From NCBI RefSeq assembly GCF_003054225.1, contig NZ_QBKQ01000001.1, forward strand, positions 372,001-436,000: DNA of 64,000 nucleotides. The letters run 5' to 3'. Positions 6,114 through 24,808 of the stretch are shown piece after piece. Each line of letters begins with the position of its first letter. Position 1 is the stretch's first letter. Below the pieces are notes generated by a model, which was not told where the DNA came from, did not search any database, and saw nothing but the letters and a program-made list of their open reading frames with translations. The stretch comes from Christiangramia gaetbulicola (GTDB lineage Bacteria; Bacteroidota; Bacteroidia; Flavobacteriales; Flavobacteriaceae). Position numbers and translations under genes: made by a program.

Positions 6114-7154
6114 TTATTCCAAAACTTCAAAAATAGTTACCGGTTGCACTTTATTCTTCAAATTAAATTTCCCTAATTCCCGGCATTTGAAATATTCCTT
6201 TATTTTCTCATAGCAGGATTCCCCAATGATGATCTGGTTCTCCTTGGCGATATCCTGGAACCGTGCAGCTGTATTCACCGTATCACCAATCACGGTGTAA
6301 TCCAGTCGCTTTAAACTTTCAGAACCTATATTTCCGGAGGTCATCTCCCCGCTTTTGATCCCTATGGAAACCTTGGGTTTAAAATCTGAATTCTCATCTG
6401 GAGGATCCAGGGCACTAATTTTATTTCTTACGGCAAGTGCTGCATCTATAGCCCGGTCCAGATGATAATCACCCCGGAAAACAGCCATTACGGCATCTCC
6501 TATGAATTTATCTATAAAACCTTTCTGGGCTATGATCTCCTTCGCCATAATATCAAAATAGGTATTGATCATTTTCACTACGGTATTGGGAGGAGCAGTT
6601 TCGCTTATCCTGGTAAAACCTACCATGTCGATAAAAACAACGCTGCCTTCTATGGTTTCATTTTCCATTAAGGACGACTCATATTCCCTACTATTCATGA
6701 ATTTAAGAACATTTTCATCCACGTACATTTTAAGGATATCATTCTCTTTAATGGCAATCAGGGTATCTTTTAATTGCCTCGCATGCTGAATCGTTTTTTC
6801 AACGGTGATAGAAAGATCTTCAAAATTTATAGGTTTGGTTATAAAGTCGAATGCACCACGATTCATGGCGGTACGGATATTTTCCATATCCCCATAGGCT
6901 GAAACGATCACCGCCTTGATCAGAGGATTCTTCTCGTTCAACTTAGTTAGTAAAGTTAGGCCGTCCATTTCTGGCATATTGATATCGCTCAAAACAATAT
7001 CTGTATCGGGTTCTTCCGAAATTTTCTCTAGCGCATCACGGCCGTTCAGGGCAAAACGGAAATCATACTCATTTTCCCGGATCTTCTTCCTGAACTTCTG
7101 CTTGATCAAAATCTCAAGATCAGCTTCGTCATCGACTACCAGTATTTTGACCAT
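6114..7154 (-). CDS. Response regulator with class III adenylate cyclase output
   Basis: A 346-residue cytoplasmic protein. The receiver domain (about 1-120) has the acidic pocket VVDDE, phospho-acceptor D57 (LSDINMPEMDG) and K107 (TKP). A helical linker leads to a class III nucleotidyl cyclase domain (about 165-345). Metal aspartates are D176 (VVFIDMVGFT) and D220 (KFIGDAVMAVF). Lys216 and Thr287 occupy the purine-selecting positions, and N294 and R298 (VNTAAR) bind ribose and stabilise the transition state. This pattern fits class IIIb adenylate cyclases, so cAMP is the expected product. It is the last gene of the five-gene operon, 18 bases after the lone receiver, and the only recognisable output domain there. 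Phosphorylation-controlled cyclase activity is inferred. Confidence 0.92.
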   Translation of the reverse strand: MVKILVVDDEADLEILIKQKFRKKIRENEYDFRFALNGRDALEKISEEPDTDIVLSDINMPEMDGLTLLTKLNEKNPLIKAVIVSAYGDMENIRTAMNRGAFDFITKPINFEDLSITVEKTIQHARQLKDTLIAIKENDILKMYVDENVLKFMNSREYESSLMENETIEGSVVFIDMVGFTRISETAPPNTVVKMINTYFDIMAKEIIAQKGFIDKFIGDAVMAVFRGDYHLDRAIDAALAVRNKISALDPPDENSDFKPKVSIGIKSGEMTSGNIGSESLKRLDYTVIGDTVNTAARFQDIAKENQIIIGESCYEKIKEYFKCRELGKFNLKNKVQPVTIFEVLE

Positions 7155-7172
7155 TTTTAGAGATTTATTTGT

Positions 7173-7553
7173 TTAGTTTAAAGCACCAAGTTTTCTTAAC
7201 TCATTCCTCAAAGACTCAAAATCGATTGGTTTGGTGAAAAATTCCTTGGCTCCAGAATTTATAGCCTTGTTATAATTCTCTGAATCGCCATAAGCCGAGA
7301 TCATACTTACCGGGATCTTAGGGAACTGCTTTTTTATTTTTTCAAGGAGCTCCAGGCCCGTCATTCCAGGCATATTGATATCAGAAAAAACATAAACCAC
7401 TTCTGGCGGATCTTTTCTTTTAAGGATCTCCAAAGCTTCTTTACCCGAAAATGCAAATTCTATTTCCAGGTCATCGTTCTTGATCTCCTTTCTGAACTTC
7501 TGCCGGAAAAGATCTTCTACATCTTTTTCATCATCTACAATTAGTATTTTCAT
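7173..7553 (-). CDS. Single-domain response regulator (CheY-like receiver)
   Basis: A 126-residue stand-alone receiver with IVDDE at the N terminus, phospho-acceptor D58 (FSDINMPGMTG), the switch Ser in MISAYGD and K108 (FFTKP). Nothing follows the receiver fold, so it can act only by protein contact or as a phosphate shuttle or sink. Its start overlaps the stop of the upstream kinase gene as ATGA, implying translational coupling, and the cyclase-linked receiver follows 18 bases later. The two receivers share IVDDE/VVDDE, SDINMP, SAYGD and TKPI/TKPINF, so they are probably paralogues that read the same kinases. Confidence 0.92.
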   Translation of the reverse strand: MKILIVDDEKDVEDLFRQKFRKEIKNDDLEIEFAFSGKEALEILKRKDPPEVVYVFSDINMPGMTGLELLEKIKKQFPKIPVSMISAYGDSENYNKAINSGAKEFFTKPIDFESLRNELRKLGALN

Positions 7554-8881
7554 TGTCTTAATTTCTTTAATTGAACAATAAACCTGGAATAGGTTTTATT
7601 ATCTGTTTTAGATTCTACTTTTAATTCTCCCCCGTGAGCTTTAATGATGTCATTGGTAATAGACAGCCCAAGTCCGGTTCCCTCTGTTCCCTTTTTTGTG
7701 GTAAAAAAAGGCTGAAGGATCTTAGATCTATATTCATCAGATATACCCGGGCCATTATCTTCAATTTCAAGCATAATTTTATCGCCCTCACGATACGTAC
7801 GGATGCTAAGTTTTGGGGAGTATTCGCATTCAGCTTTAGTCATATTGAGCTTTTCATGCATGGCATCGAAGGCATTATTACATAGGTTTAAAATGACCCT
7901 GCTAAAGTCTTCATGGATAATAGAAACCTCATCTATCTCCTCATCCAACTGATAATCTATACTCACATTTATTGGCTTTTTACCTGCTCTCATCCCATGA
8001 AAGGCTAGATTAACATACTCCTTTATAAGCCCATTGAAATCTACTTTTTCAGCTTTGCCATTGCCACCGCGACTGTGTTGTAGCATTGATTTTACAATAC
8101 TATCTGCTCGTGATCCATGCTGTTTTATCTTTTCCAGGTTAGACTTTACATCTTCCAGAATTTCCCTGGCCTCGCTTAGGGCAGCTGAGCTCTCTAATTT
8201 ATTGAGTTCTTCAAAGGTCTCCTCGATCAGCTCCACGTTCAGGTCTGAAAAATTATTAACGAAATTGAGCGGATTTTTGATCTCGTGAGCGATCCCGGCA
8301 GTTAATTCTCCAAGGCTGGCCATTTTTTCTGAATGAATAAGTTGTTCCTGGGTAGCCCTTAAACGGTTTAAAGATTCTTCGAGCTGGGAAGTTCTTTTCT
8401 TAACTTCCTCTTTTAATTCTTCATTCTTCTTTTTAAGATGCTCTATTCCAAAAGTATCTACTTCGCTATCCACAAATTCAGGTTTAGATCCATGGAAATG
8501 AACAAGCAACCACTTCTCTCCTGAATACTCATAAACACCGGTATACCTCATATACATTTCGATCTTCTCCCTATTGGCTGTTGGAGAGAAAAATTTCACA
8601 TCATCACAAAGAACCGCCACGGTATCGTTAGCCAGCATCCTGTATGAAAAAGGCTCTGAATTCCATTCCAAACGATAATTCTCCAGTTGATTCCGGGTAT
8701 TTTCCAGGATCCAGAGGTAATCTTTCTTCGAGAGAATTTTTTCATCCCAGGTTGTTCCAAAACCACTTATTTCCTCATCGATAAATTTTACGGCTTCCTT
8801 CTCAGATAATTTCCCGGAAAAGATTATCTCGAAAATTCTTTGATGAGTTTGATGAAGTAAATCTTTCTTTGTATCCATCAT
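7550..8881 (-). CDS. Soluble sensor histidine kinase with NTF2/SnoaL-like N-terminal domain
   Basis: A 443-residue kinase without signal peptide or membrane segment, so cytoplasmic. Residues about 1-140 resemble an NTF2/SnoaL-like alpha+beta fold (KWLLVHFHGS near its end). A coiled coil (about 143-185) leads to the dimerisation and phospho-acceptor helix (GELTAGIAHEIKNPLNF, His199). The ATPase domain has N-box NLCNNAFDAM, DNGPGI and GTGLGLSI. All catalytic motifs are intact. It starts 12 bases after the TPR kinase gene ends and overlaps the receiver gene by ATGA, which makes that receiver its likely partner. The ligand of the NTF2-like domain is unknown. Confidence 0.9.
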   Translation of the reverse strand: MMDTKKDLLHQTHQRIFEIIFSGKLSEKEAVKFIDEEISGFGTTWDEKILSKKDYLWILENTRNQLENYRLEWNSEPFSYRMLANDTVAVLCDDVKFFSPTANREKIEMYMRYTGVYEYSGEKWLLVHFHGSKPEFVDSEVDTFGIEHLKKKNEELKEEVKKRTSQLEESLNRLRATQEQLIHSEKMASLGELTAGIAHEIKNPLNFVNNFSDLNVELIEETFEELNKLESSAALSEAREILEDVKSNLEKIKQHGSRADSIVKSMLQHSRGGNGKAEKVDFNGLIKEYVNLAFHGMRAGKKPINVSIDYQLDEEIDEVSIIHEDFSRVILNLCNNAFDAMHEKLNMTKAECEYSPKLSIRTYREGDKIMLEIEDNGPGISDEYRSKILQPFFTTKKGTEGTGLGLSITNDIIKAHGGELKVESKTDNKTYSRFIVQLKKLRQ

Positions 8882-8893
8882 AAAATCAGAGTG

Positions 8894-11383
8894 TTAAACA
8901 GGTAATAAGATAGTAAATATTGTTCCTTCTCCCTCTTTGGTATCTATTTTTAATTCCCCACCGTGTACCTGAATGATCTCATAACTCAGGTAAAGTCCAA
9001 GTCCGGTACCCTGCCCGCTGGGCTTGGTAGTAAAAAATGGCTGGAATACCTTATCCAGGATATTCTGGGAAATTCCAATGCCATTATCCTTTACCTGTAT
9101 ACAAACCTGATCAAGTTTTTTCCTGGTTAGAATTTCGACTTTCGGGACATATTCCGGGTCGTTGGTATGGCATTTTTTCTGTTGCACAGCATAAAAGGCA
9201 TTAGTGAGTAAGTTCAGGATCACCCTTCCAATCTCCTGCGCCATGATATTGATCTTCTCCACCCCTGGATCAAAATCCTTTTCCAGATGAGCATTAAATG
9301 TTTTATCCTTTGCACGCAATCCATGATATGCTAAACGCAAATATTCATCACACAGAACATTTAGATCTGTAGGTTCTTTTTCAGAATTTTCTTTTCTGCT
9401 ATGCTGCAGCATTCCTTTTACGATCGCATCTGCACGCTTACCATGATGATTTATTTTATTAAGGTTATTCCTGATATCATTTAAAATTACTCTCACCTCA
9501 TCATGGTTTCCTTTTTCAATTTCTTCGCTAACTTCATCGAGCAATTCATTATTTACTTCAGAAAAATTATTCACAAAATTCAACGGATTCTGGATCTCAT
9601 GGGCGATTCCAGCAGTAAGCTCTCCCAGGCTTGCCATCTTTTCAGACTGGATTAGTTGGGATTGGGTAGCCTTGAGCTGATCTAAAGTCTGCTCTATCTT
9701 CTTTTTTTGCCTTTTTAATTGAGCATTGGCTTTTTGCTTGTTCTTATTGTTGCGGTATAAAATTATGGCAAGGACAACCACTGAGATCAAGACAATTAAG
9801 ACACTTATAATAAGCCAGCGCTGAAAAATACTTTCCTTTTCTTTTTCTAATTTTTCTCTTTCTAAAAGATTTATGGTCTTTTCGCTTTCATCTAAAATAG
9901 AGCGAATCTCAGCATCAGCTATTCTGTTTATTTCTTCAGATTTTTCTTTTTCTGACCTTAACAATTGATAGTCTTTTAAATACTGATAAGCCATTGCGGG
10001 ATTATCAAGCTCCTCATGGATCTGGGATAAAAGAAGAGTAGCCTTTTCAGTAGCCTGGGCGTTACTATCCAGATTCAGGGATTGGGTGGCATATTGTAAA
10101 GCCTGGTCAAAATTTTCGATTTGAAAATTACATTCTGCCAGGTATAAATTCATAAATGCAAGAGCCCACTCAACTCCCTCTATTTTTCTGAAACCCTGTT
10201 CAGCTTTCTGAAAATAGGGTATAGCTTCCTTATATCTCCCCTGGCTTTTTAATATCTGGCCCTGGGCGTCGTTATATCTTGCAATGGCCCAGTCTTTACT
10301 TCTTACGGTATCTTTGAGAGAAAGCTGCATATATTTTTTGGCCTCCTCATATTTTTCTATCGCAATAAGGGGAAATACAATGGTCCCATAGGCTATACGT
10401 AATCGTAAGGAATCCTTTTCCTTTTCTAATTCTTCAATTGCAATGCGATAGTTATCTGCAGCCCTGCTGTCCATACCATAATTTTCATAAGCTATAGCCA
10501 GGTTATACTGATCTATTATCCTTAATTCCCGATCTTCGACAGGATCTAATAACTCCAGGGTTTTCAGGTAATATTCAATCGCAAGTGACCACCTGCCCTG
10601 CATCCTGTAACCATTTGCCATAGCGCTATGAATAAGTGCCAGATTATTTTTATCCTGTTCTGCAGACATTAATTTGATCAATTCCAGCTCTATTTTTTTG
10701 GCCTCTTCTTCCTTTTCTAAATAGACCAGGGTTCCCATTTTAATGGTCGATAAATGAAATGCAGGATAGATCTCACCTATTTCTGAGAATAAGTTTATAG
10801 CTTCTGTTAGCTTCGTTAATGCTGTTTCCGGGCTCTCGAGGCGATAATAGGTTCCGGCGATAGCGTATAAAAGATTCGCCTGTATCTCTTTGTTATCTGA
10901 TAATTCATCCCTGGCGAGTGTCTTATTAAATTGATCCTGAAACAGTTCTACATCTAAATTTGAATCAGCCCTCATTATATCTGTAAAATTGCTATTATCA
11001 TCACGCGCTTCTTCTAAGTAATTGGAGATCTGCTGAGCCTTTTTTCTATAATAAATACTAATGGGATTGTCACGATCATAATAGAAATAGGATAAGGTTA
11101 AATAGTACATGGCTTCCCCTTCAGCATAATCCAATTTATCAGAAAGTGCTTTTGCTTCTTGTAGAGCCAGGAAACCATCTTCAAATTCAGGAATTAAAAA
11201 ACACAAACGCGCGAATTCATTCTTTAATCTTATAATTCTTGTTTCGTCCCCGGAAGATTTGTCTATAAGTTGTTTTACACTATCCTTCTTAAATTTATAA
11301 TCCTCTATATCACGGCTAGTCTGGCCTAAACTATTTAGACCTACCGCTAAGAAAAGGAGACATAATAGGTGATTGATTTTCAT
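8894..11383 (-). CDS. TPR-type membrane sensor histidine kinase
   Basis: An 829-residue kinase with a signal peptide (cleavage probably after LNSLGQ, about residue 21). About 450 residues of tetratricopeptide repeats in the periplasm follow, then a membrane helix near 525-545 (WLIISVLIVLISVVVLAII). A cytoplasmic coiled coil carries KATQSQLIQSEKM before the phospho-acceptor helix (GELTAGIAHEIQNPLNF, His595). The ATPase domain has NLLTNAFYAV, DNGIGI and GTGLGLYL. The catalytic half is nearly the same as that of the giant kinase upstream, suggesting duplication. Its start overlaps the stop of the giant kinase gene as ATGA. Members of this architecture usually sense protein or envelope cues through the TPRs, but the ligand is not evident here. 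Confidence 0.92.
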   Translation of the reverse strand: MKINHLLCLLFLAVGLNSLGQTSRDIEDYKFKKDSVKQLIDKSSGDETRIIRLKNEFARLCFLIPEFEDGFLALQEAKALSDKLDYAEGEAMYYLTLSYFYYDRDNPISIYYRKKAQQISNYLEEARDDNSNFTDIMRADSNLDVELFQDQFNKTLARDELSDNKEIQANLLYAIAGTYYRLESPETALTKLTEAINLFSEIGEIYPAFHLSTIKMGTLVYLEKEEEAKKIELELIKLMSAEQDKNNLALIHSAMANGYRMQGRWSLAIEYYLKTLELLDPVEDRELRIIDQYNLAIAYENYGMDSRAADNYRIAIEELEKEKDSLRLRIAYGTIVFPLIAIEKYEEAKKYMQLSLKDTVRSKDWAIARYNDAQGQILKSQGRYKEAIPYFQKAEQGFRKIEGVEWALAFMNLYLAECNFQIENFDQALQYATQSLNLDSNAQATEKATLLLSQIHEELDNPAMAYQYLKDYQLLRSEKEKSEEINRIADAEIRSILDESEKTINLLEREKLEKEKESIFQRWLIISVLIVLISVVVLAIILYRNNKNKQKANAQLKRQKKKIEQTLDQLKATQSQLIQSEKMASLGELTAGIAHEIQNPLNFVNNFSEVNNELLDEVSEEIEKGNHDEVRVILNDIRNNLNKINHHGKRADAIVKGMLQHSRKENSEKEPTDLNVLCDEYLRLAYHGLRAKDKTFNAHLEKDFDPGVEKINIMAQEIGRVILNLLTNAFYAVQQKKCHTNDPEYVPKVEILTRKKLDQVCIQVKDNGIGISQNILDKVFQPFFTTKPSGQGTGLGLYLSYEIIQVHGGELKIDTKEGEGTIFTILLPV

Positions 11384-14300
11384 CGGTTTGTTTTTATTAT
11401 GATTGTGAAGGTTGTTCCTTTGCCTTTTTGAGTTTCTACTTCCAGGACACCTCCATGGGCCTTTACAATATCGTAGCTTAGACTAAGTCCCAAACCAGTT
11501 CCCTGCCCGGTTGGCTTGGTGGTAAAAAATGGCTGAAAGATCTTATCCAGGTTCTTTTTTGGAATTCCACAACCGTTATCTTTAACACGAATAAGCACCT
11601 GGTTCGCTTCCTTATGAGTTGAAATGCTGACTTTTGGTTCATATAAAGGATCATTGGTATTTTTTCTTTTCTGCAATACGGCATAAAAGGCGTTGGTAAG
11701 TAAGTTGAGGATAACCCTTCCAATCTCCTGGGCCATCACAGCGACATTTCCCAGGTCTGGATCAAAATCTGTTTCCAGATCAGCATTAAATGATTTATCC
11801 TTAGCCCGTAAGCCATGATAAGCCAAACGCAGATATTCATCACACAGGACATTAATATCTGTAGGTTCTATTTCTGAATTACCTTTCCTGCTATGCTGCA
11901 GCATCCCTTTTACAATAGCATCTGCGCGCTTGCCATGATGGTTTATTTTATTAAGATTATTCCTGATATCCTTTAAAATTTCTCTTACCTCCTCCAGATC
12001 TCCTTTTTCAATTTCTTCAGCTATTTCATCGAGCAATTCATTGCTTACTTCAGAAAAGTTATTCACGAAATTCAACGGATTCTGGATCTCATGGGCTATT
12101 CCTGCAGTGAGTTCTCCCAGACTTGCCATTTTCTCAGATTGAATTAATTGTTTCTGGGTTTGCTGAAGTTCTGTAAGTGCTCTTTCTGCATTTTCCCTGG
12201 CTGCCTTTATTTCTTTAAGATCCTGCCTGGCTTTGATGGCATTCGCTTCAGCAACTTTCAGATCTTTAAAACGGATATAGGTAAGGTTAAATACTGCCGC
12301 AAAACGTTCCAGCAATTCAAGTGCATCTTCGTCCTGTTCCTCTCCGGAAGCTAAACCAATAAGACCACCAGAAAAATAGGCCATATACTGTATCCTCCTT
12401 TTTTGTTCAAGACCACCCTGGAATGGGATCTTCAATTCCTCATTTAGATACCTGAAATAATTCTGCAATTCCCTGCCTTCCATATCTATTATCTGAGAGG
12501 TCTTTCCCTGCTTCCAGCCGTCTAACATCCGGGCAATAGATCTATTTTTTGAAGCCTCTAACTTAAAGTGATTTGCAAGCCTGGTGCCGTCTTCATTGGT
12601 CGCCCAGGCATCTATGGTGTCCAGGTCACTATCAATTAAACCAATAAATAATCTATTTGGAGAAATACCCAATTCCAGTAGCTGCTCAAAAACGACCATG
12701 GAGGTTTCAGTAAATTCCTGGCTATACTCCATAGCCAGCGTACGGCTTCTCACTTTTTCCAAAGCCGTTTCAACCCTGGCTTCCCTTGCCCGCTGTTCTG
12801 CCTTTTGCAAATCGAGGAAACGGGTATAGGACTGTTCAAAAACCCTGGCGAATCTTTTAAAGATCTCGTAAGATTCCGGGACCGATTCATAGGTGATAAA
12901 AAGGAGATATCCATATTTAAAAAAAGCAACATGATCTATCTGGGAGGTTGGGAAAGAAATTCCCTGTGCTTTCATTTGCAATAATTGATCACCAACTCCC
13001 GGCAGAGTACATAAATATTTGTAATGGGCAGGACACTCGTCTTCACCTATTTCGTTAACCAGCAAGCTTTGGCCTTGCTGTCCCGCTTCATAATATTTAA
13101 GAAAAACCCCTTCTCTTGGTGTTCTGTATTTAGGGAATACACCCTGGCCATTGCTACCCCATTCCAAAGACCCCTTTTCTTCATCGTCATAAATATTGAA
13201 GGCACAAAACCAGGTGGACACTCCCAGTTCCTGAACCTGTTTTACCAGTTCCAGTGAAAGATCTGCCAGATCTTCGCTCTTCTGCATACCTATAGATCTG
13301 CTACGGATCCTTTCCAGAGCAGCTTCAACCTGTGCTTCCCTGGCCTGAAGTTCTGCTTTTTTAAGATCCAGATACCTGGTGTAAGCCTGTTCAAAGACCT
13401 TAGCAAAACGAGGAAGAATATGGGCTTCCTCAAAAACCTGCAAAGCAGAAACCAGTATATATCCATTTTTAAAGGATGCTCCATAGTCAATTTCCCAGGG
13501 AGGTGCCCCGGGCATAGGAGTATCATTTTCTTCCAGATCTTTAAGCACTTTTTGAGCAGAAGGAAGATTGAAAATATCCTGAAAATGTTGTTCAATAAAA
13601 TCCCCCGGTATCTCTATAGAGAATAACTTTTCTCCCTTTTTCCACTGGTTATATCTGTATTCATGAATATAGTCCAGGTCTTTTGGAACAATAAAAGGAC
13701 TCATCATACCAGCCCCTGGAATACTATGCCACTGCTCCACATGATCTTTGTGCTTATCACAAAAAACAATTCCGGTGGCAAATAGATCGCCTCCAAAATT
13801 TCGTAGTTGATTAAACATTTCGGTAGTGACAGAGCTAAAATCCTTGCTATTTTGCATTCCCATAGACCTGCTACGAACTCTCTCCAGCGCCGCTTCAATT
13901 TGAGCCTGTTTGGTTTGAGCTTCGGCATTTTCCAGGTCACGAAACCGGGTATAAGTTTGCTGAAATACCTTACCGAACCTTAGAAGGGTTTTATTTTCTT
14001 CTTCAGAAAAGGGCTCACCTTCAAAATTCTCTATATAAAGCCCCACATCATCCATTAAAACTGTAGATATGGCCAGCCCTTTACAGTTTTGATAATAGCT
14101 TTTTGTTTCTTCTGCTACACCCGGAATAATTTCGAACAACTCCCGATAAAATTTATTTTTTTCTTCAAAAGTGTACAGGTTGCTGAAAAAATTATCACCG
14201 TTCTTTTTAGCCTTTAAAAAACTGTTCCAGTTAGGCGTATCGATATAGGGAACCGTTACTTCAGCAGGAATACTATTTTTATCGGTAAGCCAGATATGCA

Positions 14301-17300
14301 TATCATCATTCTCTTTGTAGTCTATGATAAACCCGGTGTGTTCTATATTAAAATTCAGATGTACCAGTTGATCAAAAACGACCTTTATAACCTCCTCCAG
14401 TTCTGAACTTTTTTGCATCCCCATAGTCCTACTACGCACCCTTTCCAGAGCTGCCTCGATCTGAGCCTCCCTGGCCTGATTTTCGGCTTTTTGAAGATCC
14501 AGAAAACGGGTGTAGGTAAGGCTGAAACTTCTGGCAAAGCGTTTGCAGATTTCAGCATATTCCAGGGTTAGTGGTTCATCAAGGAATACGAACAGGACCC
14601 CATCCTTAAAGGGAAAACTGAAGTGAAAGACAATTTCAGATAAAGTATCCAGATCTATATTCACCGGGTAATCCCTGACCGTATTTAACCTATCGAAATA
14701 TTTGTATTTATCCTTTCCTTTTAATTCATAGGAAAAAGCCGAATCGCCATTTTCCCAGGCCATTTTCACACCTTCCAGCAAAGGATGAAGGCTCATATCT
14801 AAAGTTCCCGTAGTAAGTTTTGCCTGGTGTCCTTTTTTAGTAGAGGCCGTATATAATTGCATGTGTTCAGACTGACTGAGAATTCCAATTCCACATCTGG
14901 TAGATTTCTGAAGTCCCAATCCGCGTAGTTCCTTAAAGAAAGTGATTACGGTGTTTCCTATCTCATCGGTATTATGCATTGCCATCGTCGCGGCCCTGAT
15001 ACGCTCCAAAGCAAGGTTGATTTCAGCTTCCCTGGCCTGTTTTTCAGCTTTCTGAAGGTCTAGAAAACGAGTATAGGTCTGATCAAAAACTTTGGCAAAC
15101 CTGGTGAAAATCTCATGTTCTTCTGTGGCAGGTTCAAGAGTATTGAACATGAGATAACCATGCGTAAAAAAGGCGCAATGCATGATCTGAAAGACAGGCG
15201 GAGATTGTCCTTTTTCTTCCAGCTGATTCAGGATCCTATTAAAAACAGGGATAGAGGCCATATAATCATAATGAGCTTTTAATTCTTCCCCTTTTTGTTC
15301 TTCTACGTACAATTTATCGCCGCGTTTCATCGCTTCATAAATTCGAAGAAAAATGTCTTTGGAGCTCGAGGTTTGAAATGCAGGTTGAAATCTATCCATA
15401 CCGCTCATCCAGGCAGTGGCTTCAGATCTATCATTATTCCATATATTAAAACCACAGCCCATAACATTTATTCCCAGGGCTTGTATTTGATCGAACAAAA
15501 GTGCTGCGGTCTCCTGTAATTCTGAACTATGCTGCATACCCATGGTTCGACTTCTAACACGTTCTAAAGCTGCCTCGATCTGAGCCTCCCTGGCCTGGGC
15601 TTCGGCTTTTTGAAGATCCAGAAAGCGTGTATAGGCCTGTTCGAAGACTCTCCCGAAGCGCTCCAGTATTTCCAGGTCATTTTCAGAAATAGGTTCTTCA
15701 CTTACTGTCTGGAGTCCGCTATATTCAAAAAAAGTAAAGCCTGCTACATATCTTTCAAGAGCCTTATTGGCTTCCTGAACATGCTCAGGGAATCGTCTGA
15801 ATTCAGTTTCTGAATAGAGATATTCATCATATATTTTTTTCTCTTCACCTTCCAGGGTATATATAAATCGCTTTTTCTGAGCTTTCCAGGCATCCCACAT
15901 GGCGTGATGAAAGGGATAATTTTCAAATTTCATATAATAGGATTCTGCATCCTTTCCTGTTTCGGGATTTGCAGCCCATACGGTATTGCTCCTATCCTTT
16001 TCATTAATAAGATTGATAATGCAGAATGTGAGGGTGAATTCCAGATCTGTAAACTCCTTAAGAAGCTTATCTACCACAGAGGACAACTCAGAGGAATGAT
16101 GCATGGCCAGACTGGTTGATCTTACTCTTTCCAGGGCTGCCTCTATCTGAGCCTCCCGGGCCTGGGCTTCAGCCTTTTTAAGATCCAGAAAACGGGTATA
16201 GGTTTGCTCAAATACTTTCCCGAAACGTTTAAAAATCTCATGAGCTTCGGGAACTTCCTCATAGGTGATAAAAAGTAAAAACCCTTTATTGAACCTCACC
16301 AGGTGATTGAACTGTCGTGTGGGTAGATCTAATCCTGCCTCCTGGAATTGCTCAAAGGTCTTTTTTAGTTCCGGCAGAGATGCCAAATAATCATAATGCG
16401 CGACCAGATCCTCACCTTCCTGACCATAAATAAAAAAATCACGGTTTTTAATAATCGTTTCATGCCAGGGAAGCAGACTTTCATGCTCTGTTAAAGGCAA
16501 CACAAAAGGCTCCTGCATTTCCCCTTCGCTACTCATGATACAGGTACTGGATCTTTTATCTTCTGAAAGAATATTATATCCTGCACTCCATGCTGGAATT
16601 CCCAACTTTTGGATTTCCAGAAAAAGTATATTGGCAGCTTCAGGTAACTCCTTAGAATGCTGCATAGCCATGGTTCGACTTCTTACCCGTTCTAAAGCTG
16701 TTTCGATCTGGGCTTCCCTGGTTTGAGCTTCCGCTTTTTTAAGATCCAGGAAACGGGTATAGGCCTGTTCAAACACACTCCCAAATCGTTTTAAAACATT
16801 GTTCTCATGCTCGGTGAATATCCTGCCATGATGATTAATTATAAATATCGAGGTGTTCTTAAAAACGGCACATGAACGGGTATATCCACCTTCGCGTGAA
16901 AAGACTTCTTTTTTATGCGACTCATCGGCATTTAAATATGGAGGGAATTTAAAAAGGTGTTCAAAAAATTCAATTTTCTCCGCCTGGCTGAATTCTTCCG
17001 TGAAAAATCCCGGGCCCTTCTTTATTCCATTAATAAGATTTTTGTAGATAGGTTTATCGATAGGGGGTACATGAACCTTTTGTACATATTCTGCCGTACC
17101 GCCTGCACCCCAGCACCATAGCTCATCCTTTATATCTGAATTGATCGTGATAAAAGCACCTCCGGATAAGGAGAGTTGTAAATTAAGAAGTTCCCGGTGA
17201 ACCGTGTTGATGACATCCTGAAGCTCATTAGTATGTTGCATCTCCAAAGACCTCGCTCTTACCTTTTCTAATCCCATCTCGATTTGTAGTTCCCGGGACT

Positions 17301-17799
17301 TTTCCTCAAGTTCTTTAGTGCGTCTTTGAATGGCCTCTCTCAATTGTAAATTTTCAGCGCTAATCTGGTCAAAGCCTATGGTCTCTCCTTCTTCTGCCTT
17401 GGCATCTGGAATTGAAAAATGCTGATAAATAAATTTCCAGCCATCCTTAGTTTCATGAAGAGCGTTAGAAAACCTGAACCTGCCATAATACGTCCAATCT
17501 CCTTCATCCATGAACCAGGCATCAAAGAGGTGGGTTAAAAAAATGACGTCCCCGAATTTTTCAATGGTGGTAATATTGTTTCTCAGGTCAGTTTTCCCGG
17601 CAAATTGATCGGTGGTTTTTCTAAAAAATTCAGTGGTATCCTTTCGGTTTAGAAACTCTTCATTGTTTGTAGAACCAATGAAATGGTAATTATCATCAAA
17701 ATAGGAATCGTAGGTATCTATATCACCATTCAAATAACTATCAAGCCACTTTTGATAAATATTCAGAATCTCATTTTTCTGTTTTTGAGTTATGCTCAT
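11380..17799 (-). CDS. Giant soluble histidine kinase with nine repeated GAF-like sensor modules
   Basis: A 2139-residue protein without signal peptide or membrane helix. Residues about 1-140 form an NTF2/SnoaL-like domain and 150-185 a coiled coil. Nine copies of a ~188-residue unit follow. Each starts with a helix resembling AALERVRSRTMGMQ-S-EL, continues into an alpha/beta domain of GAF-like length, and ends in RFAKVFEQTYTRFLDL-KAEAQ. The helices begin near residues 170, 357, 547, 735, 920, 1108, 1296, 1483 and 1670. The kinase core has His1903 (GELTAGIAHEIQNPLNF), NLLTNAFYAV, DNGCGI and GTGLGLSL, so it should autophosphorylate. It is the first gene of the operon and overlaps the TPR kinase by ATGA. 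The GAF-like label is inferred from size, position and secondary-structure pattern. Ligands are unknown. Confidence 0.9.
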   Translation of the reverse strand: MSITQKQKNEILNIYQKWLDSYLNGDIDTYDSYFDDNYHFIGSTNNEEFLNRKDTTEFFRKTTDQFAGKTDLRNNITTIEKFGDVIFLTHLFDAWFMDEGDWTYYGRFRFSNALHETKDGWKFIYQHFSIPDAKAEEGETIGFDQISAENLQLREAIQRRTKELEEKSRELQIEMGLEKVRARSLEMQHTNELQDVINTVHRELLNLQLSLSGGAFITINSDIKDELWCWGAGGTAEYVQKVHVPPIDKPIYKNLINGIKKGPGFFTEEFSQAEKIEFFEHLFKFPPYLNADESHKKEVFSREGGYTRSCAVFKNTSIFIINHHGRIFTEHENNVLKRFGSVFEQAYTRFLDLKKAEAQTREAQIETALERVRSRTMAMQHSKELPEAANILFLEIQKLGIPAWSAGYNILSEDKRSSTCIMSSEGEMQEPFVLPLTEHESLLPWHETIIKNRDFFIYGQEGEDLVAHYDYLASLPELKKTFEQFQEAGLDLPTRQFNHLVRFNKGFLLFITYEEVPEAHEIFKRFGKVFEQTYTRFLDLKKAEAQAREAQIEAALERVRSTSLAMHHSSELSSVVDKLLKEFTDLEFTLTFCIINLINEKDRSNTVWAANPETGKDAESYYMKFENYPFHHAMWDAWKAQKKRFIYTLEGEEKKIYDEYLYSETEFRRFPEHVQEANKALERYVAGFTFFEYSGLQTVSEEPISENDLEILERFGRVFEQAYTRFLDLQKAEAQAREAQIEAALERVRSRTMGMQHSSELQETAALLFDQIQALGINVMGCGFNIWNNDRSEATAWMSGMDRFQPAFQTSSSKDIFLRIYEAMKRGDKLYVEEQKGEELKAHYDYMASIPVFNRILNQLEEKGQSPPVFQIMHCAFFTHGYLMFNTLEPATEEHEIFTRFAKVFDQTYTRFLDLQKAEKQAREAEINLALERIRAATMAMHNTDEIGNTVITFFKELRGLGLQKSTRCGIGILSQSEHMQLYTASTKKGHQAKLTTGTLDMSLHPLLEGVKMAWENGDSAFSYELKGKDKYKYFDRLNTVRDYPVNIDLDTLSEIVFHFSFPFKDGVLFVFLDEPLTLEYAEICKRFARSFSLTYTRFLDLQKAENQAREAQIEAALERVRSRTMGMQKSSELEEVIKVVFDQLVHLNFNIEHTGFIIDYKENDDMHIWLTDKNSIPAEVTVPYIDTPNWNSFLKAKKNGDNFFSNLYTFEEKNKFYRELFEIIPGVAEETKSYYQNCKGLAISTVLMDDVGLYIENFEGEPFSEEENKTLLRFGKVFQQTYTRFRDLENAEAQTKQAQIEAALERVRSRSMGMQNSKDFSSVTTEMFNQLRNFGGDLFATGIVFCDKHKDHVEQWHSIPGAGMMSPFIVPKDLDYIHEYRYNQWKKGEKLFSIEIPGDFIEQHFQDIFNLPSAQKVLKDLEENDTPMPGAPPWEIDYGASFKNGYILVSALQVFEEAHILPRFAKVFEQAYTRYLDLKKAELQAREAQVEAALERIRSRSIGMQKSEDLADLSLELVKQVQELGVSTWFCAFNIYDDEEKGSLEWGSNGQGVFPKYRTPREGVFLKYYEAGQQGQSLLVNEIGEDECPAHYKYLCTLPGVGDQLLQMKAQGISFPTSQIDHVAFFKYGYLLFITYESVPESYEIFKRFARVFEQSYTRFLDLQKAEQRAREARVETALEKVRSRTLAMEYSQEFTETSMVVFEQLLELGISPNRLFIGLIDSDLDTIDAWATNEDGTRLANHFKLEASKNRSIARMLDGWKQGKTSQIIDMEGRELQNYFRYLNEELKIPFQGGLEQKRRIQYMAYFSGGLIGLASGEEQDEDALELLERFAAVFNLTYIRFKDLKVAEANAIKARQDLKEIKAARENAERALTELQQTQKQLIQSEKMASLGELTAGIAHEIQNPLNFVNNFSEVSNELLDEIAEEIEKGDLEEVREILKDIRNNLNKINHHGKRADAIVKGMLQHSRKGNSEIEPTDINVLCDEYLRLAYHGLRAKDKSFNADLETDFDPDLGNVAVMAQEIGRVILNLLTNAFYAVLQKRKNTNDPLYEPKVSISTHKEANQVLIRVKDNGCGIPKKNLDKIFQPFFTTKPTGQGTGLGLSLSYDIVKAHGGVLEVETQKGKGTTFTIIIKTNR
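12720..17300 (-). repeat. Nine in-frame tandem DNA repeats encoding the module junctions
   Basis: A stretch of about 120-130 bases recurs near 12730, 13290, 13850, 14410, 14980, 15530, 16110, 16670 and 17240. It codes for the end of one module (YTRFLDL-KAEAQ) and the helix opening the next (EAQIEAALERVRSR). Period is about 555-570 bases. Copies are recognisable at the DNA level, for example GCCTCGATCTGAGCC and variants, while the bodies between them differ widely. The first copy (17240) keeps only the helix half because no module precedes it. Confidence 0.85.
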
Positions 17800-23778: not shown

Positions 23779-24339
23779 TCATAAAAAAGTGGCTACGATA
23801 TAATAAATTACAATCACCAGCAGTAGCACGAATTGGATAGCTAAAAACTTGAGGGCACGCTGTACATTCTGGAATTTAAGGTTGGCGATCTTGGCATTTA
23901 TAAAAATTTGCTGCCCTAACTGATCGAACAACTGTTCCTCATCCAGACTTATATTAAAAAAGGTTCGAGAAAATTGCTTGATATCCCCGAACTTGGAGAT
24001 CACATCCCCGAAGAAAAATATGTTCTTGTCATATTTAGATTCGATACGCGGCATAAAACACCTGATGCTGTAATAAATAGAGACCACGGCACACGAGAAC
24101 CAGACCGCCAGCAAAATGAAAATGATCGTATCATCATCGAAATGGTCCAGAACCAGGCTAATGTTCTGGTAGACGAAATTCAGCAGGATTCCGTAAAAGG
24201 AAAGTATTAAACCGGCCTTGATCTCTGAGGCCTTGATCAAACTGGAAACATAGCTAATGCTGCCCCAGTAATGGTCAATAAGATCATCTGTATGTTTATT
24301 CTTTAAATGCGGAAAGGTTTTGTTTTCAGATTCTTCCAT
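23779..24339 (-). CDS. PycTM-like (DUF5706) small membrane protein
   Basis: A 186-residue protein with an amphipathic start (HYWGSISYVSSLIKASEIKAG) leading into membrane helices at about 42-62, 72-95 and 162-184. The order of helix, two membrane segments, the FFFGDVI motif, a cytoplasmic helical part (ISLDEEQLFDQLGQQIFINAKI) and a last helix matches the Pycsar effector transmembrane family. In Pycsar defence such proteins open on cyclic pyrimidine nucleotides made by an adjacent cyclase. Here no cyclase is adjacent, so the role may be housekeeping or unrelated. It precedes nothing in an obvious operon and follows the TerB-like gene on the same strand by 133 bases. The assignment comes from pattern memory, not alignment. 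Confidence 0.65.
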   Translation of the reverse strand: MEESENKTFPHLKNKHTDDLIDHYWGSISYVSSLIKASEIKAGLILSFYGILLNFVYQNISLVLDHFDDDTIIFILLAVWFSCAVVSIYYSIRCFMPRIESKYDKNIFFFGDVISKFGDIKQFSRTFFNISLDEEQLFDQLGQQIFINAKIANLKFQNVQRALKFLAIQFVLLLVIVIYYIVATFL

Positions 24340-24472: not shown

Positions 24473-24808
24473 TTAATAAAGTATATTATCCAGGATCTTA
24501 TCCAGGGTATTTTCCATCATGCTGAACTTTTTATCAGAAAAGAAGACCTCAAACATTTCTTTTCTTAACTGTGTAAGCTCTTTATGGGAATATTCATGCA
24601 TCACCAGGTTATCCTGAATTTTCTCCAGACTCTCCTCCTCAGTGTCCCCCTTAAACTCCTCGTACATTTTATCGAAGGTCTTCTTATCTGTTTTAGATTT
24701 TATCAATTCAAGCTCCTCCTCGGTCACATTCGAATCGGCATTCGCGCATAACATCAAGATATAGATCTGAAGTTCGGTTTTGGTCCAGTGTTGCTGTTGG
24801 TCACTCAT
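24473..24808 (-). CDS. TerB-like small acidic protein
   Basis: An all-helical 111-residue cytoplasmic protein. The opening WTKTELQIYILMLCANADSN followed by VTEEELELI resembles the acidic metal-binding helix pair of TerB/DjlA-type domains. It is shorter than typical TerB (about 140-150 residues) and ends in a helix ILDNILY. Function in these families is unclear, often linked to envelope stress or tellurite resistance clusters. No other ter gene is present. Its leader holds a perfect 8-base-pair hairpin (24863-24883). It is upstream of the PycTM-like gene on the same strand. Confidence 0.6.
   Translation of the reverse strand: MSDQQQHWTKTELQIYILMLCANADSNVTEEELELIKSKTDKKTFDKMYEEFKGDTEEESLEKIQDNLVMHEYSHKELTQLRKEMFEVFFSDKKFSMMENTLDKILDNILY

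What the first reader, a model, noticed from the sequence alone, without database searches (positions are those of the whole stretch)
6114..17799. Five-gene phosphorelay operon with cAMP as the only visible output
Three kinases (giant, TPR-membrane, short soluble), a lone receiver and a receiver-adenylate-cyclase are packed with ATGA overlaps (11380-11383 and 7550-7553) or gaps of 12 and 18 bases. No DNA-binding, GGDEF or protease output is present. The cyclase keeps both metal Asp (D176, D220), Lys216/Thr287 and N294/R298. The set looks like a multi-input switch for cAMP, which is little studied in Bacteroidota.
Basis: partly seen in the sequence, partly recalled or inferred. Interest (0 to 1): 0.8.

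Follow-up and report, generated by a model that had tools for sequence, protein, structure and literature searches.

The report
Multi-kinase switch for a cAMP-type cyclase
Three sensor proteins in a bacterium appear to converge on one enzyme that makes a cyclic nucleotide messenger, and several related bacteria place beside it a membrane protein of a kind known from phage defence, which suggests that a defence-type part may serve an everyday signalling circuit.

Summary
In detail: five packed minus-strand genes (6114-17799) encode three histidine kinases, a lone receiver and a receiver-cyclase with all catalytic residues. It is no strict phosphorelay (no HPt or hybrid receiver), and 'cAMP as the only visible output' is too narrow. 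The kinases and receivers are each other's only close kin in the genome, as in an insulated 3-to-2 circuit. 'Kinase(s), lone receiver, receiver-cyclase' recurs in 36 of 36 loci examined, with changing sensors, and on a rhizobial plasmid. In 11 of 18 family relatives the next gene encodes a short PycTM-family membrane protein; all 19 of 199 family genomes with the full cyclase have such a gene somewhere, against 19 of the other 180. The window's own lies at 23779-24339, 16.6 kb from the cyclase. The cyclase domain is nearest to adenylate cyclases among solved structures, though defence-library PycC models match it too. Against a fixed link: 21 of 26 cyclase genomes across the phylum show no short PycTM. 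Phosphotransfer, product and effector are inferred.

The parts
11380..17799 (-). Giant soluble histidine kinase, 2139 aa: SnoaL_3 (11-132), nine tandem GAF-like repeats (176-1863), HisKA/HATPase (phospho-His H1903)
12211..17274 (-). The nine ~187-aa repeats of the giant kinase; no Pfam match; one unit predicted at pLDDT 95.6 and matched by Foldseek to GAF domains
8894..11383 (-). TPR - one predicted transmembrane span (about residues 517-547) - histidine kinase, 829 aa, H595
7550..8881 (-). Short soluble histidine kinase, 443 aa, SnoaL_3 + HisKA/HATPase, H199; 's' subtype of the core
7173..7553 (-). Lone receiver, 126 aa, type 'a'
6114..7154 (-). Receiver (4-116) - class III cyclase (171-339), 346 aa; D57/K107, D176/D220, K216/T287, N294/R298
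23779..24339 (-). Short PycTM-family membrane protein, 186 aa, orthologue of the gene directly behind the cyclase in relatives; proposed effector, not in the operon here
24473..24808 (-). 111-aa protein (TerB-like match below cut-off) beside PycTM here and in several relatives; role unknown

Best explanation
A many-to-one two-component circuit for a cyclic nucleotide. Three kinases with different inputs (SnoaL_3 plus nine GAF-like repeats; TPRs ahead of one membrane span; SnoaL_3 alone) share one kinase core and phosphorylate two related receivers. Phosphorylation of the receiver fused to the cyclase is expected to activate its class III homodimer, which most likely makes cAMP. The lone receiver is either the special partner of the short kinase or a competing phosphate acceptor that tunes the switch. 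In this family (Flavobacteriaceae, by the nearest named relatives) the cyclic nucleotide most likely acts on a short PycTM-family membrane protein (here 23779-24339), changing membrane behaviour rather than transcription. Shown: gene content, residues, exclusivity of kinase and receiver types in the genome, recurrence in 36 loci, PycTM adjacency in relatives. Inferred: phosphotransfer, cAMP as product, activation by phosphorylation, PycTM as receptor.
For: Three places with this kinase core at E <= 1e-20 in the whole genome (100/77/52% identity) and two receivers of this type (three further matches at 31-36%), all five in this operon. 36 of 36 loci with a full-length orthologue carry at least one such kinase and a lone receiver; in 34 of 36 the lone receiver directly precedes the cyclase. 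Catalytic and receiver residues identical in 36 of 36. Nearest solved structures of the cyclase domain: CyaB 6.3e-24, a photoactivated adenylyl cyclase 1.3e-22, another 1.2e-18, against 1.7e-4 for 7r65 (recalled as a pyrimidine cyclase; the PDB name is adenylate/guanylate cyclase) and 0.18 for 8jsz, named uridylate cyclase. A short PycTM gene follows on the same strand after 17-102 bases in 11 of 18 family relatives and in Seonamhaeicola L116, behind an HD gene in L039, and in a genome of another family, L204; 5 of the 12 family copies were scanned with Pfam, all 5 match PycTM, the rest rest on similarity. All 19 family genomes with the full cyclase have a short PycTM, 19 of 180 others do (Fisher 2e-16, not corrected for kinship). 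Kinases of the short kinase's subtype in 6 of 8 loci with receiver type a, 0 of 28 with type b.
Against: In the window the PycTM gene is 16.6 kb from the cyclase with other genes between, and the genome has four more class III cyclases that could feed it. Across 395 phylum genomes, 21 of 26 with the receiver-cyclase show no short PycTM at E <= 1e-12. Of 17 named loci only L116 has it in the stretch held; Lutimonas (L126), of the same family by taxonomy, does not. In 6 of 18 family relatives it is not in the cluster, and in 5 of these the genome's copy is distant (34-43%). Described PycTMs answer to cyclic pyrimidines (passages of PMC11224242 and PMC12489823). PADLOC PycC models match this cyclase (best 6.9e-25) better than three other class III cyclases (best 2e-14, 2.3e-16, 2.4e-18). 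The PycTM model is weak (pLDDT 71.4, two sequences) and finds no solved relative.
Confidence: 0.5

Rival explanations
1. The circuit makes cAMP, but the receptor is something else (a cNMP_binding protein or an unrecognised one); PycTM is a neighbour by history in some relatives and serves the genome's other cyclases.
For: 21 of 26 receiver-cyclase genomes across the phylum sample show no short PycTM. Of 30 short PycTM loci, 7 lie by other cyclases or TPR-cyclase homologues, 3 by partial matches to such and 1 by a different receiver-cyclase. The genome has five cNMP_binding matches.
Against: 12 of 18 family relatives have PycTM next to the cyclase or one HD gene away, and all 19 family genomes with the full cyclase hold a short PycTM. 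None of the five cNMP_binding proteins shows the canonical CRP motif by a simple pattern (motif recalled).
Confidence: 0.32
2. It is a Pycsar-like defence system under two-component control: the cyclase makes cUMP or cCMP and PycTM damages the membrane on infection.
For: PycTM-family effector. PADLOC PycC models hit the cyclase at up to 6.9e-25, more strongly than three other class III cyclases.
Against: Base-contact residues reported for two pyrimidine cyclases with known metal positions (F100/R142/Q144 and F60/K104/F109), placed here by distance from the metal Asp, give F174, K216, I218 and F174, I218, M223: the Phe is shared, the other two are not. The third set (Y50/D94/R97) could not be placed with certainty. 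Cyclase domain far nearer to adenylate cyclases among solved structures. The PycC models also match other class III cyclases. No match of the window's PycTM in 72,556 plasmid or 50,697 phage records at E <= 1e-5.
Confidence: 0.1
3. The lone receiver is the main output (through a protein partner) and the cyclase only a side branch or feedback.
For: The lone receiver is present in 36 of 36 loci.
Against: The cyclase's catalytic residues are identical in 36 of 36 at 60-77% overall identity, which fits selection on the cyclase.
Confidence: 0.08

Closest known systems
Receiver-class III cyclase response regulators, e.g. on Rhizobium etli plasmid pRetIE4803d (annotated 'adenylate cyclase/signal receiver domain-containing protein')
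   Same: Kinase - CheY-like receiver - receiver-cyclase in the same order with overlapping genes; 36.6% identity over the full query
   Different: One kinase in the stretch seen, three with very different sensors here. Two hypothetical genes follow the cyclase there; I did not examine them. A second rhizobial plasmid (L208) has kinase and cyclase but no lone receiver annotated between.
Pycsar (PycC + PycTM)
   Same: Class III cyclase plus PycTM-family membrane protein, adjacent in relatives
   Different: The cyclase carries adenylate-type residues and a phospho-receiver and sits with histidine kinases; PycTM is not adjacent in the window
CyaB catalytic domain (3r5g; Pseudomonas aeruginosa, organism recalled)
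   Same: Nearest solved relative of the catalytic domain, with the same Lys and Asp-Tyr-Thr pattern
   Different: Regulatory region not a phospho-receiver (recalled)
Kinase - receiver - receiver-SpoIIE clusters in other phyla
   Same: Same kinase core and receiver type, same order in Ignavibacteriae L133
   Different: Output is a SpoIIE phosphatase domain, not a cyclase

Membership tests
Receiver-adenylate cyclase response regulator | Receiver with phospho-acceptor Asp and conserved Lys | tested here: met
   D57 and K107 in 36 of 36
Receiver-adenylate cyclase response regulator | Class III catalytic residues: two metal Asp, Lys/Thr for the base, Asn/Arg | tested here: met
   D176, D220, K216, T287, N294, R298 in 36 of 36; roles of the residues recalled
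Receiver-adenylate cyclase response regulator | Makes cAMP when phosphorylated | not testable with these tools
   needs an assay
Multistep phosphorelay | HPt protein or hybrid kinase with internal receiver | tested here: not met
   Neither among the five proteins; the rest of the genome was not searched for HPt
Pycsar | PycTM- or PycTIR-type effector | tested here: met
   window 23779-24339: PF18967 2.7e-14, PADLOC PycTM 1.7e-28
Pycsar | Effector gene beside the cyclase gene | tested here: not met
   16.6 kb apart in the window; adjacent in 11 of 18 family relatives
Pycsar | Pyrimidine-type cyclase residues | tested here: not met
   1 of 3 residues shared with each of two published sets; a third set could not be placed. 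PycC profile matches point the other way but are not specific
Pycsar | Makes cUMP or cCMP and protects from phage | not testable with these tools
   needs assays

The most novel reading that the evidence does not exclude
A two-component-controlled adenylate cyclase gates a Pycsar-family membrane effector: short PycTM proteins are cAMP-answering parts of everyday signalling in Flavobacteriaceae, fed by several kinds of class III cyclase, and the phage-defence Pycsar systems are one specialised use of the same pair.
Probability: 0.33. Interest if true: 0.82.

Novelty: new variant of a known kind. Interest (0 to 1): 0.62.

Why it matters
My searches of the held open-licence papers, seen only as (partly capped) listings, showed none on a cAMP receptor in Bacteroidota or on this circuit. 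If a PycTM-family protein answers to a kinase-controlled adenylate cyclase, that messenger gains a target, a phage-defence effector is tied to ordinary physiology, and a clean test system results: three kinases, two receivers, one cyclase, one candidate effector, each gene removable.

Tried and rejected
Strict phosphorelay: rejected, no HPt or hybrid receiver in the five proteins. Exact five-gene order as the conserved unit: rejected, only the core recurs. PycTM as a fixed partner of the cyclase: rejected for the phylum (5 of 26), kept for the family. PADLOC PycC hits as proof of a pyrimidine cyclase: weakened, since the models match three other class III cyclases too, though less strongly. 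PF18967 matches in 151 of 199 genomes as support: set aside, because nearly all rows listed have open frames of 384-496 aa, which I take for HD-PycTM fusions (HD part seen by eye in one; not all matches were listed). Fold comparison of PycTM: no match at E <= 0.001. Two Bacteroidota-type promoter patterns (recalled) ahead of the giant gene: none found in 354 bases. cAMP binding by the GAF-like repeats: some of the best matches are cyclic-nucleotide GAFs, but they are weak and general to the fold; not claimed. A first alignment script failed on a wrong pattern and was redone (L113 and L206 dropped there); its result is not used. Loci L053 (partial cyclase of G005, whose genome has a distant PycTM close to it on the same contig) and L054 (distant, larger protein) were left out of the 36. 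The cyclase searches scored only the best 10 or 5 candidates of each genome. Papers: PMC11224242 (outline, passages, section 7 part 1), PMC12489823 and PMC12471899 (passages); all others only as search listings.

Full report
OBSERVATION. The five minus-strand genes are present exactly as described; the ATGA overlaps and the gaps of 12 and 18 bases hold. Pfam assigns histidine kinase parts to three proteins, receivers to two, and a class III cyclase domain to the last. The phospho-acceptor histidines are H1903 (giant), H595 (TPR kinase) and H199 (short kinase) by motif. The five proteins hold no HPt and no hybrid receiver, so 'phosphorelay' fits only loosely.

INPUTS. The giant kinase carries SnoaL_3 and nine repeats of about 187 aa with 25-47% identity to one another. 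Pfam does not name them. A unit modelled on an alignment of 44 repeats (9 of the window, 35 from named loci) has mean pLDDT 95.6; its ten best solved matches are mostly GAF domains, with Foldseek E-values of 8e-4 to 5e-3 and TM-scores near 0.5. I call them GAF-like. The second kinase has TPRs ahead of one predicted membrane span; the third has SnoaL_3 only.

INSULATION. In the window's genome (3.64 Mb, 8 contigs) the kinase core finds three places at E <= 1e-20, all in this operon. The receiver finds itself, the lone receiver (49%) and three others at 31-36% at E <= 1e-12. This fits a closed set of three kinases and two receivers; it is not a test of specificity.

RELATIVES. In 199 genomes of the family, 23 match the cyclase at E <= 1e-30: 19 (own included) over the full length at 69% identity or more, one partial, three distant. 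The window, 18 family loci and these 17 make 36. Each has one to five kinases of this core and a lone receiver; in 34 the lone receiver directly precedes the cyclase gene, in L045 and L051 a kinase lies between (several stretches are cut by contig ends, so kinases may be missed). D9, D57, S85, K107, F174, D176, K216, D220, T287, N294 and R298 are identical in 36 of 36.

WHICH KINASE, WHICH RECEIVER. Loci fall into those with a lone receiver of type a (70% or more to the window's; 8 loci with the window) and of type b only (28 loci). Kinases nearer to the short kinase than to the giant's core occur in 6 of 8 type-a loci and in 0 of 28 type-b loci (Fisher 1.4e-5, not corrected for kinship). This suggests that 7550-8881 and 7173-7553 are a cognate pair.

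PRODUCT. By sequence the cyclase domain is nearest to CyaB and photoactivated adenylyl cyclases, and far from 7r65 (recalled as a pyrimidine cyclase) and from 8jsz, a uridylate cyclase. K216 and T287 are the adenine-type pair (assignment recalled). Of two published pyrimidine-cyclase residue sets that I could place, one residue of three is shared each time. PADLOC PycC models do match it, and more strongly than three other class III cyclases, so a pyrimidine product is not excluded.

OUTPUT. A short PycTM-family gene follows the cyclase gene on the same strand after 17-102 bases in 11 of 18 family relatives and in L116; in L039 an HD gene lies between. Five of these 12 family copies were scanned with Pfam and all five match PycTM; the others rest on similarity. 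The window's orthologue is at 23779-24339 on the same strand, 16.6 kb from the cyclase and 6 kb ahead of the giant kinase gene; it matches PycTM itself. All 19 family genomes with the full cyclase hold a short PycTM (14 at 54% identity or more, 5 at 34-43%), against 19 of 180 others (Fisher). Of 30 short PycTM loci (+-1.5 kb), 12 lie by this cyclase (one behind an HD gene), 1 by another receiver-cyclase, 7 by other cyclases or TPR-cyclase homologues, 3 by partial matches to such, 2 by an HD gene only, and 5, the window's among them, by none of these. In the TPR cases the stretch may not reach the whole catalytic domain, and the L107-type cyclase was named by eye, not by a Pfam scan. Against a general rule: in 395 genomes of the phylum 26 have the cyclase (E <= 1e-80), 8 a short PycTM (E <= 1e-12), 5 both, and of the 17 named loci only L116 shows it. 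The window's PycTM has no match in the plasmid or phage collections.

WIDER KIN. The same order, kinase - receiver - receiver-cyclase, stands on a Rhizobium etli plasmid; a second rhizobial plasmid shows kinase and cyclase without an annotated lone receiver. The same receiver type is fused to SpoIIE phosphatase domains in other lineages (5 of 8 proteins scanned; the other three carry AAA/PAS or kinase parts). So the relay is an old module with exchangeable outputs; the multi-sensor cyclase branch in Bacteroidota and its PycTM partner in one family are the observations I would call new.

LITERATURE. A search for PycTM with response regulator or histidine kinase listed one paper holding all three terms, a genome description seen only in the listing. 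Searches on cAMP and cyclases in Bacteroidetes, Bacteroidota or Flavobacteriia listed none that looked to be on this circuit (listings only, capped at 12 of 358). Only open-licence papers are held; the founding Pycsar paper was not available.

VERDICT. A real and recurring multi-input two-component circuit for a cAMP-type messenger, with a Pycsar-family membrane protein as the likeliest effector in this family. The first half is well supported by sequence; the second is a testable inference.

Noticed in passing
window 24473-24808; L037, L043, L044, L098: A 111-aa protein (TerB match below cut-off) sits beside PycTM in the window and in several relatives, ahead of it here and behind it there.
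   Followed up: partly
L117:11437-12897, L121:11406-12893: HD - YitT - DUF2179 fusion proteins directly behind the receiver-cyclase in two Bacteroidetes MAGs; a candidate off-switch or other output.
   Followed up: partly
L036:10733-14241, L048:11814-13007, L116:2947-5316: FIST sensory proteins upstream of the kinases in relatives; none among the window proteins that I scanned.
   Followed up: partly
G000:C2:735356-735901 (L004): A 2Fe-2S ferredoxin - class III cyclase - globin fusion in the window's genome (Pfam), perhaps a redox- or oxygen-sensing cyclase.
   Followed up: partly
G000:C3:750303-750626: Second PycTM match of the genome, in a 419-aa frame like those common in the family.
   Followed up: no
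window 6114-7154, residue 178: Val in the window's cyclase where the other 35 sequences have Cys.
   Followed up: no
L126:11471-21430: A kinase of at least 3320 aa with 16 of the GAF-like repeats directly behind the receiver-cyclase in Lutimonas halocynthiae.
   Followed up: no
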